This document shows positions 16,621 to 18,924 of a DNA stretch of 64,000 bases, piece by piece (the stretch's first letter is position 1; each line of letters opens with the position of its first letter). The position numbers and the translations under genes were made by a program. Where the stretch lies: positions 2,356,001-2,420,000 of the forward strand of contig NZ_CP011773.1 in assembly GCF_001021385.1 (NCBI RefSeq), written 5' to 3'. The DNA comes from Mycobacterium sp. EPa45. Its GTDB lineage: Bacteria; Actinomycetota; Actinomycetes; Mycobacteriales; Mycobacteriaceae. Below the pieces are notes generated by a model. It was given only the letters and a program-made list of their open reading frames with translations, ran no database searches and was not told the DNA's origin.

Positions 16621-17090
16621 CGGTCGCCGTACGCCGCTCCTGGGCCAAGGACCTCGACGCGGCCACCCTCTACGAGCTGCTGAAGCTTCGGGTCGAGGTG
16701 TTCGTCGTCGAACAGGCCTGCCCCTACCCGGAACTCGACGGCCGCGACCTGCTGGCCGAAACCCGGCACTTCTGGCTGGAGCAACCCGACGGCACGGTGA
16801 TCGCCACGCTGCGGCTGATGGAGGAGCACGCCGGCGGGGAAAAGGCGTTCCGCATCGGGCGGGTGTGCACTCAGCGGGCCGCCCGCGGTCAGGGGCACAC
16901 CACCCGGCTGATGCAGGCCGCGCTGGCCGACGTCGGTGATCACGCGTGCCGGATCAACGCCCAGACCTACCTCGTCGACATGTATGCCAACCACGGCTTC
17001 GTCGTCGATGGCGCCGAATTCCTCGAGGACGGGATTCCGCACGTGCCGATGATGCGGCCGGCCGCGCCCATTCTGGCCGAGAAGCCGTGA
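16617..17090 (+). CDS. ElaA-like GNAT N-acetyltransferase
   Basis: 157 residues, GTG start overlapping the mqo stop. The acetyl-CoA loop appears as IGRVCTQRAARGQGHTTRLM, matching the R/Q-x-x-G-x-G/A pattern of GNAT enzymes, and the ElaA-like N-terminus reads LYELLKLRVEVFVVEQ-CPYPELDGRD. Acceptor substrate unknown. Its stop overlaps the chelatase start by 4 bp, so mqo, this gene and the chelatase are translationally coupled. Confidence 0.87.
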   Translation: MTVAVRRSWAKDLDAATLYELLKLRVEVFVVEQACPYPELDGRDLLAETRHFWLEQPDGTVIATLRLMEEHAGGEKAFRIGRVCTQRAARGQGHTTRLMQAALADVGDHACRINAQTYLVDMYANHGFVVDGAEFLEDGIPHVPMMRPAAPILAEKP

Positions 17091-18924
17091 GCGCACCGGG
17101 TTTTCCGTTCAGTGCGATCGTCGGGCACGACCAGCTGCGGCTGGCTCTGATCCTGTGTGCGGTGCGCCCGGAAATCGGCGGTGTGCTGATCCGCGGCGAG
17201 AAGGGCACTGCGAAGTCGACGGCGGTGCGGGCCCTGGCCGGGATTTTGGCCGAGGTCGATTCGGGCTCGAAGCTCGTCGAGTTGCCGATCGGGGCGACCG
17301 AGGATCGGGTGGTGGGTTCGCTGGACCTGCAGAAGGTCCTGCGCGACGGCGAGCACGCCTTCTCGCCGGGCCTGCTGGCCCGGGCCCACGGCGGCGTGCT
17401 CTACGTCGACGAGGTCAACCTGCTGCATGACCATCTCGTCGACATCATGCTCGACGCCGCAGCGATGGGCCGGGTGCACATCGAGCGCGACGGAATCTCG
17501 CACTCACACGAGTCGCGGTTCGTGCTGATCGGAACCATGAATCCCGAAGAGGGCGAATTGCGTCCGCAGCTGCTGGACCGATTCGGGCTGACCGTCGATG
17601 TGCACGCCTCGCGGGATGTGGCGGTGCGCAGCGAGGTGATTCGGCAACGGTTGGCCTACGAGGCCGACCCAGGCGGCTTCGCCGCACTGCACGCCGGGCA
17701 GGACAGTGAGCTGGCCGCCCGGATCGCCGCTGCCCGAAACCGGGTGGCCGCGGTGGTGTTGCCGGACGCCGAGCTGAACCGGATCGCCGCGCTGTGCGCG
17801 GCCTTCGACGTCGACGGTATGCGCGCAGATCTGGTGGTGGCCCGCACCGCGGTGGCCCACGCGGCCTGGCGAGGTGCGGCCGCTGGGGCGACGGGAAATA
17901 TCACGGTGACGAGCGAGGACATCAGGGTGGCTGCCGAGCTGGCGTTGCCGCACCGGCGCCGTCGCGATCCGTTCGACGACCCCGGCCTGGACCCCGCGCA
18001 GCTCGACGAGGCACTGGCCGCCACCGACGGCAGCCCGGAAACCGACCCCGACCCGGACCCGCCCGGCGGGGGGCAGGCTAGCGACGGAACTTCGCAACCT
18101 ACTATGCCACAAGGTAATTCGTCGTCTGCGCCCAAGCCGGCCGCGCCGCCCGCGGCAACGTTCCGGACCCGGTCGCTGACGGTGCCGGGGGTGGGGACGG
18201 CAACCCGGGCCGGCGCTCGCGGGCCCGCAACCGCGCCGGCGCGGTCATCAAGGCCACCGACGTCCCCGAGCAGGGCCACGGCCTGCATCTGTTCGCGACC
18301 GTGCTGAACGCGGCGGGCAATGGCCGGCTGCGGCCACAACCCGAGGACGTCCGGCGTGCCATCCGGGTCGGCCGGGAGGGAAACCTGGTGATCTTCGTCG
18401 TCGATGCCTCCGGGTCGATGGCGGCGCGCGATCGGATGTCGGCGGTCTCCGGTGCGGCGCTGTCGCTGCTGCGTGACGCCTATCAGCGCCGCGACAAGAT
18501 TGCGGTGATCACCTTCCGCCAGGACGGTGCGAAAGTGCTGCTGCCTCCGACGACCTCGGCGCACATCGCGTCGCGGCGGTTGACCCGGTTCGACACCGGC
18601 GGCACCACCCCGCTGGCGCAGGGATTGCTGGCGGCCCGCGACATCGTGGTCCGTGAACGGGTGCGCGACCGCACCCGGCGCCCGCTGGTGGTGGTGCTCA
18701 CCGACGGCCGGGCCACTGGTGGCCCGGATCCATTGGGGCGCAGCCGTTCTGCGGCTCGGCGACTGGTCGCCGAGGGCGCCGCGTCGGTGGTGGTGGACTG
18801 TGAGACGTCGTACGTGCGGTTGGGCCTGGCCGGCGATCTCGCCGAGCACCTGGAAGCCCCCGTGCTGCAACTGGAGCAGTTGCGCGCAGACTATCTGGCA
18901 CAGGCCGTGCGCCGCGCGGCCTGA
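17087..18924 (+). CDS. AAA+/VWA metal chelatase subunit (ChlI/ChlD- or CobS/CobT-like), interrupted by a -1 frame change
   Basis: Read straight, the frame from GTG 17087 stops at 18307 after 406 residues. The AAA part has Walker A RGEKGTAKST, Walker B LYVDEVNLLHDHLVD and sensor LIGTMNPEEGELRPQLLDRFG. From about 18196 the homologous continuation lies in the -1 frame (GNPGRRSRARNRAGAV, then GHGLHLFATVLNAAG) and runs to 18924, adding a VWA domain with MIDAS motif VVDASGSMAARD and VLTDGRATGG. Joined, the product is about 612 residues, close to the single-chain mycobacterial chelatase (Rv2850c type). It may energise insertion of Co (with CobN) or Mg. Either a true programmed frameshift gives short and long subunits, or there is a mutation or read error at the G-runs. 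Confidence 0.85.
18187..18240 (+). other. Candidate -1 frameshift site in the chelatase gene
   Basis: The sequence GGGGG (18187-18191), T, GGGG (18193-18196) precedes the frame change. In the zero frame the codons are CCG GGG GTG GGG ACG; a GGG in the P site can slip back one base onto GGG and read GAC next. A strong stem, GCCGGCGC (18209-18216) with GCGCCGGC (18233-18240), starts 12 nt downstream. The -1 frame is open from 18118, so the shift must lie between there and 18307. Confidence 0.55.

What the first reader, a model, noticed from the sequence alone, without database searches (positions are those of the whole stretch)
17087..18924. Metal chelatase gene carries a -1 frame break that could make two subunits from one gene
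Seen: AAA+ frame ends at 18307 with a short out-of-frame tail; the VWA half continues in the -1 frame from about 18196, next to GGGGG-T-GGGG and 12 nt before an 8-bp GC stem. The -1 frame has no ribosome site at its own GTG (18301). Known: mycobacterial chelatase is one chain of ~629 residues; programmed frameshifting in chlD-type genes has been reported to yield both small (ChlI/CobS-like) and large (ChlD/CobT-like) subunits for cobaltochelatase. Inference: either a working slip site giving AAA-only and AAA-VWA proteins for CobN, or a single-base deletion / read error in the G-run.
Basis: partly seen in the sequence, partly recalled or inferred. Interest (0 to 1): 0.85.

Follow-up and report, generated by a model that had tools for sequence, protein, structure and literature searches.

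The report
Private frame break in cobalt-chelatase gene
An ordinary vitamin-B12 enzyme gene carries a one-letter frame break not seen at this place in the relatives examined, most likely a sequencing slip or a fresh mutation, not a built-in switch that makes two proteins.

Summary
In detail: the AAA+ half (17087-18307) and the VWA half (open 18118-18924) lie in frames that differ by a net one nucleotide, the change falling at about 18184-18213 between two conserved motifs. A programmed slip site is not supported. Of 37 same-genus genomes searched with an unbroken relative, 35 carry both halves in one open frame, one lies across contig ends, and only this one is split within a contig. A database protein with halves identical to the window's (368/368, 206/207) is unbroken; its sources are masked. 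The five codons around the G-run vary at silent sites (62 distinct 15-mers in 94 genes), and one relative has the same 12-mer with an unbroken frame. There is no canonical slip heptamer, and the stem folds no better than shuffles (z -0.36). Private frame splits are as frequent in two relatives. VWA-only proteins on long contigs exist for some relatives; at least five of the 13 seen break elsewhere. I conclude a private indel, an assembly error (about 0.55) or recent mutation (about 0.38), in an ordinary fused cobaltochelatase subunit gene.

The parts
17087..18307 (+). AAA+ (ChlI/BchI-like) half of a fused cobaltochelatase subunit gene; GTG start, out-of-frame tail after about 18196, TGA at 18305-18307
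   Evidence: ORF list; Pfam AAA_5, AAA_lid_2, Mg_chelatase; TIGR02442 putative cobaltochelatase, best stretch at profile 85-369 of 641
18118..18924 (+). VWA (ChlD-like C-terminal) half, in the -1 frame; open from 18118, listed start GTG 18301
   Evidence: Pfam VWA_2, VWA; TIGR02442 profile 454-641 of 641
18184..18213 (+). interval in which the frame changes, between the conserved VPGVG and PGRRSRAR motifs
   Evidence: translations of 16 usable relatives; tblastn with unbroken relatives, halves end and start there
18187..18196 (+). GGGGG-T-GGGG, part of the codons of P-G-V-G in the linker motif; not conserved at silent sites
   Evidence: 62 distinct 15-mers for the five codons in 94 genes
18209..18240 (+).
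16617..17090 (+). GNAT-type acetyltransferase (below the curated cut-off of its best model), upstream neighbour, overlapping the chelatase start
18946..19560 (+). cobO, cob(I)yrinic acid a,c-diamide adenosyltransferase
19554..20933 (+). cobB, cobyrinic acid a,c-diamide synthase
20930..22153 (+). uroporphyrinogen-III C-methyltransferase / sirohaem synthase (CysG-like)

Best explanation
This is the ordinary one-chain AAA-linker-VWA subunit of the aerobic cobaltochelatase, which in relatives is one polypeptide of about 600-620 residues thought to drive CobN. In this assembly its frame is broken by a net one-nucleotide change in a G-rich part of the linker. Shown: the break, its absence at this place from the relatives examined, and an unbroken protein with identical halves on record. 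Inferred: the break is either a base-calling or assembly error in the G-rich stretch (about 0.55), so that the organism makes the normal single chain, or a very recent real indel in this isolate (about 0.38), which would leave an AAA-only protein with a short foreign tail and probably no working chelatase motor. No programmed frameshift is involved.
For: Relatives: of 37 same-genus genomes, 35 have both halves in one open frame, G003 is cut by contig ends, and G000 alone is split within a contig. Of 139 loci examined, some of them the same gene twice, 132 have an open frame of at least 560 aa around the AAA match, 122 of these distinct, and in 121 of the 122 both halves lie in that one frame. 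The 7 shorter ones are the window's own gene, four that run off the fetched DNA, L076 (no VWA half matched) and L093 (C. xerosis, split). Identical halves: P0001, 612 aa, unbroken, 368/368 and 206/207 residues (the one difference is the start codon read as M), 4 contigs, longest 6785 bases. VWA-only search: of the 120 proteins listed (1814 found) none was more than 95% identical, so no second record of this very gene split was seen. Background: in 664 kb only the chelatase is split in G000 while both other genomes keep the frame (1 of 313 and 1 of 325 usable genes); the same test gives 4 of 319 and 4 of 325 for G004, and 1 of 319 and 3 of 313 for G053. dN/dS of both halves against six relatives is 0.035-0.113, within the 0.018-0.137 seen among unbroken relatives. 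CobN is whole in this genome.
Against: The rest of the surveyed 664 kb shows no other such break in G000, so the assembly is not generally poor; that weakens pure error and raises the share of a real mutation. The sources of P0001 are masked with the mark the tool gives to proteins the window itself encodes, although the window does not encode it unbroken, so whether its four contigs are this isolate, another strain or a metagenome is unknown. VWA-only proteins on long contigs exist for other relatives (13 of the 120 listed), so splits of this gene are not unique; at least 5 of the 13 lie upstream of this site, the other 8 cannot be placed. The VWA half has a slightly higher dN/dS (0.035-0.058) than three control pairs (0.018-0.036). 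No reads were available.
Confidence: 0.93

Rival explanations
1. Programmed -1 ribosomal frameshift: ribosomes slip at the G-run, giving an AAA-only small subunit and an AAA-VWA medium subunit for CobN, as proposed for fs-chlD genes.
For: The frame relation is -1 and the overlap is 187 nt. A tRNA on GGG could re-pair in the -1 frame at 18187 or 18193. Programmed frameshifting in chlD is described in PMC9227772. Both halves are conserved. Splits of this gene are seen in some other assemblies.
Against: No X XXY YYZ heptamer in the 187-nt overlap. Fold z -0.36 and 0.31. The five codons vary at silent sites in 94 genes, and L033 has the same 12-mer with an unbroken frame. Relatives are unbroken, as is P0001 with identical halves. 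Published signals are usually AT-rich. Where the other splits can be placed (at least 5 of 13 VWA-only proteins, and L093) they lie elsewhere in the gene.
Confidence: 0.04
2. Two separately translated polypeptides: the AAA half stops at 18307 and the VWA half restarts at GTG 18301 by translational coupling, the two pieces working together as separate subunits.
For: The GTG at 18301 overlaps the end of the AAA frame by two codons, a geometry that can allow coupling. In other lineages small and medium subunits are separate proteins (PMC9227772).
Against: No Shine-Dalgarno-like run before 18301 (by eye). Starting there would leave out most of the conserved PGRRSRARN...HGLHLFATV linker, which is open in the VWA frame upstream of that start. 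The 35 same-genus genomes with both halves on one contig do not show this arrangement. P0001 is unbroken.
Confidence: 0.03

Closest known systems
TIGR02442 Cob-chelat-sub, fused BchI/BchD-like cobaltochelatase subunit (M. tuberculosis Rv2850c and relatives; that Rv2850c belongs here is recalled)
   Same: The halves match the model in order (best stretches at profile 85-369 and 454-641 of 641); CobN is present; cobO, cobB and a cysG-like gene follow
   Different: In this assembly the frame is broken in the linker. Unbroken P0001 scores 709.9 bits against a cut-off of 779.45, so even the unbroken relative is under the curated line.
fs-chlD, chlD genes with programmed frameshifting (PMC9227772)
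   Same: AAA and VWA halves in different frames; CobN-type cobaltochelatase
   Different: No conserved or AT-rich slip site, no significant downstream structure, and the break was not found at this place in the relatives examined
Gene-fragmenting indel errors in long-read assemblies (PMC12007338, start of abstract seen in the listing only)
   Same: Frame break, relatives unbroken; the G-rich site is typical of such errors (recalled)
   Different: The sequencing method of this genome is not known to me and no reads were seen

Membership tests
fused cobaltochelatase subunit (TIGR02442) | N-terminal AAA+ with AAA lid | tested here: met
   Pfam AAA_5, AAA_lid_2, Mg_chelatase above cut-off
fused cobaltochelatase subunit (TIGR02442) | C-terminal VWA domain | tested here: met
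   VWA_2 63 bits, VWA 43.8 bits, above cut-off
fused cobaltochelatase subunit (TIGR02442) | both halves in one continuous chain | tested here: not met
   Frame broken in the window; met in 35 of 37 same-genus genomes and in P0001
fused cobaltochelatase subunit (TIGR02442) | score over the model's curated cut-off | tested here: not met
   AAA half 454.6, VWA half 230.3, unbroken P0001 709.9 bits; cut-off 779.45
fused cobaltochelatase subunit (TIGR02442) | CobN in the same genome | tested here: met
   G000 1138.1 bits over cut-off, no stop inside
fs-chlD with programmed frameshift | halves in different frames with an overlap | tested here: met
   187-nt overlap 18118-18304
fs-chlD with programmed frameshift | slippery site (usually AT-rich per PMC9227772) | tested here: not met
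   No X XXY YYZ heptamer; only single-site GGG re-pairing at two places
fs-chlD with programmed frameshift | downstream stimulatory RNA structure | tested here: not met
   z -0.36 (54 nt) and 0.31 (94 nt); four relatives 0.21, 0.81, -0.14, -1.02
fs-chlD with programmed frameshift | signal conserved in relatives | tested here: not met
fs-chlD with programmed frameshift | no separate small-subunit gene in the genome | tested here: inconclusive
   A 460-aa AAA ATPase lies in one open frame in G000 and 17 of 17 relatives. G093's copy is only weakly ChlI-like (35.8 bits, cut-off 466.95); its role was not tested
fs-chlD with programmed frameshift | both proteins made | not testable with these tools
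   needs proteomics or a reporter

The most novel reading that the evidence does not exclude
A species-specific frameshift at a G-run has just arisen in a lineage whose chelatase was one chain, so that this isolate makes AAA-only and AAA-VWA proteins from one gene, the first step of a re-evolved fs-chlD arrangement.
Probability: 0.04. Interest if true: 0.6.

Novelty: not a real feature. Interest (0 to 1): 0.07.

Why it matters
It shows how a single indel in a G-rich linker next to a GC stem can look like a recoding signal. If true as first read it would extend one-gene-two-subunit cobaltochelatases to mycobacteria; the evidence does not support that. It also warns that this gene may be annotated as a pseudogene or as two genes in this genome, which would mislead vitamin B12 pathway predictions.

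Tried and rejected
Programmed frameshift: tested by conservation, slip-site scan and folding, and rejected.

Long-dead pseudogene: rejected, since neither half has further stops in its own frame and dN/dS lies in the range of unbroken relatives (the AAA stretch of the control pairs was 371-402 codons against 351-353 for the window, so not exactly the same stretch).

Recurrent break at the same site in other assemblies: of the 120 VWA-only proteins listed I fetched 14, namely 13 on contigs of at least 33 kb and P0122 on a short one. Five of the 13 (P0121, P0144, P0151, P0169, P0214) already hold the VPGVG motif in the VWA frame, so their break is upstream of the window's. The other 8 begin at starts further down and their break cannot be placed.

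Generally poor assembly: not supported in the 664 kb surveyed. In a first pass over 264 kb G000 showed 5 apparent splits with G004 genes and 4 with G053 genes. I inspected four of these places: the chelatase, and three that I read as one-base differences at gene junctions that join neighbouring frames in G004. The others were not inspected one by one. One search counted 12 apparent splits in G000 with G004 genes and 9 with G053 genes, using genes with a match in all three genomes, counted 8 and 9. Apart from the chelatase, all of these fell away when the third genome was asked to keep the frame.

Paper searches: (frameshift, homopolymer, Mycobacterium) gave only background. The 2020 paper by Antonov on chlD frameshifting did not come up and was not seen.

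Full report
What is there. The window lies at 2,356,001-2,420,000 of a genome held as one contig of 6.18 Mb. Its relatives are Mycobacterium in the wide sense; among the nearest named proteins are those of Mycolicibacterium sp. P1-5 and M. aichiense. The gene at 17087-18924 sits in the row malate:quinone oxidoreductase, GNAT acetyltransferase, chelatase, cobO, cobB, a CysG-like methyltransferase, two efflux transporters. The same order around Rv2850c in M. tuberculosis is recalled, not looked up; a paper table names Rv2850c 'ChlI component of cobalt chelatase' (PMC8192938, passages only).

The break. The AAA+ frame runs from GTG 17087 to TGA 18305-18307. The VWA frame is open from 18118 to 18924, one nucleotide off, with an overlap of 187 nt. 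The 16 relatives usable read on through VPGVG (or VPGIG) into GRRS without interruption. In the window VPGVG is in the AAA frame and GNPGRRSRARN in the VWA frame. So the frame changes within about 18184-18213. Searching the own genome with each half found one place for each: there is no second, whole copy.

Relatives. With an unbroken relative (P0006, 605 aa) as query, 51 of 61 genomes matched. All 37 same-genus genomes matched; 35 have both halves in one open frame (in three of them the match is only 57-59% identical), G003 is cut by contig ends, and G000 is the only one split within a contig. An earlier search with the AAA half matched 196 of 198 genomes of the genus, the own one included; in the rows printed there (the tool cut the list) the open frame is over 600 residues in all but G000 and G003. 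Of 139 loci examined in a script, some from the same genomes, 132 have an open frame of at least 560 residues around the AAA match, 122 of them distinct. In 121 of the 122 both halves lie in that frame; in L083 only the AAA half was matched. The seven shorter ones are the window's own gene, four that run off the fetched DNA, L076 (no VWA half matched) and L093 (Corynebacterium xerosis, split).

A record with identical halves. The best protein hit, P0001 (612 aa, 4 contigs, longest 6785 bases), is identical to the window over all 368 residues of the AAA half up to the G-run, and over 206 of 207 residues of the VWA half; the one difference is the start codon read as M. It is unbroken. Since its longest contig is 6.8 kb it should not come from this 6.18-Mb record. 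Its sources are masked with the mark that the tool gives to proteins the window encodes, so its origin stays open. All 120 proteins listed (8000 candidates scored) are 585-642 residues long, the size of the unbroken chain.

Splits elsewhere. A search with the VWA half alone found 1814 proteins, 120 listed, the best 95% identical; no second record of this split was seen. But 13 of the 120 are VWA-only proteins on contigs of 33 kb or more, so this gene is split in some other assemblies too. Five of these hold VPGVG in the VWA frame, so their break lies upstream of the window's; the other eight cannot be placed. L093 is split at another place and in another direction. I saw no shared site.

Is it more than background? 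I compared 664 kb of this genome with 660 kb of G004 and 540 kb of G053. Asking for genes split in one genome while both others keep one frame, this genome has one, the chelatase, by either query (of 313 and of 325 usable genes). G004 has 4 of 319 and 4 of 325; G053 has 1 of 319 and 3 of 313. A private split is therefore an everyday event in these genomes, by error, mutation or start misreading; several of the control splits lie near gene starts. It also means that this assembly is not full of indels, which is why I do not put the error reading higher than about 0.55.

No sign of a signal. There is no X XXY YYZ heptamer in the AAA phase anywhere in the overlap; only a single GGG could re-pair at two places. 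Of 122 genes 94 carry the linker motif in the form I searched for. Their five codons at this place are written in 62 different ways, the longest G-run being 2 to 5; L033 (M. rhodesiae JS60) has the same 12-mer as the window and an unbroken frame. The G-run is just one spelling of P-G-V-G.

Selection. dN/dS of the window's halves against six relatives is 0.072-0.113 (AAA) and 0.035-0.058 (VWA). Three pairs of unbroken relatives give 0.131-0.137 and 0.018-0.036 (the control AAA stretch is somewhat longer). The VWA half is thus slightly less constrained than in the controls, but nothing suggests long decay; the break, if real, is recent. A frameshifted but working gene would also look like this, so the test speaks only against an old pseudogene.

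Pathway. CobN is whole here and in 10 of the 11 genomes searched, this one included; in G009 it is split. The one-gene-two-subunit idea gains weight when a separate small subunit is missing; that enrichment is recalled from the 2020 paper by Antonov, which I did not see. PMC9227772 (two of four parts read, plus passages) puts M. tuberculosis among species with separate chlI and chlD. A 460-residue AAA ATPase is present in one open frame here and in 17 of 17 relatives; G093's copy has weak ChlI likeness. That it is the chlI meant is recalled and untested.

Verdict.

Noticed in passing
L093, about 4044-4061 (Corynebacterium xerosis NBRC 16721): The chelatase homologue there is also split between two frames in its linker, but at another site and in another direction; draft genome, cause unknown.
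   Followed up: partly
proteins P0121, P0123, P0144, P0151, P0163, P0169, P0172, P0176, P0192, P0198, P0212, P0214, P0236: VWA-only chelatase proteins on contigs of 33 kb to 3 Mb in other relatives: this gene is split in some other assemblies, at no shared site that I could show. The AAA halves and the DNA were not looked at.
   Followed up: partly
G009:C1:2518102-2521565: In a relative with an unbroken chelatase, cobN is the gene that is split over two open frames (808 and 420 residues).
   Followed up: no
G150:C1:1097-4588: A second cobN copy at the start of this relative's contig has an internal TGA and pieces in several matches, while a whole copy lies at the other end of the same contig (5,486,459-5,489,956 of 5,494,915); perhaps an unresolved overlap of contig ends.
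   Followed up: no
window 22187-23758 and 23841-25334: Two tandem DHA2-type efflux transporters, 61% identical over 476 residues; M. tuberculosis is recalled to have one (efpA) at this place.
   Followed up: partly
L076 (Nocardia higoensis NBRC 100133): The chelatase homologue matches only the AAA half; the DNA after it did not match the VWA half, perhaps a rearrangement or an assembly join.
   Followed up: no
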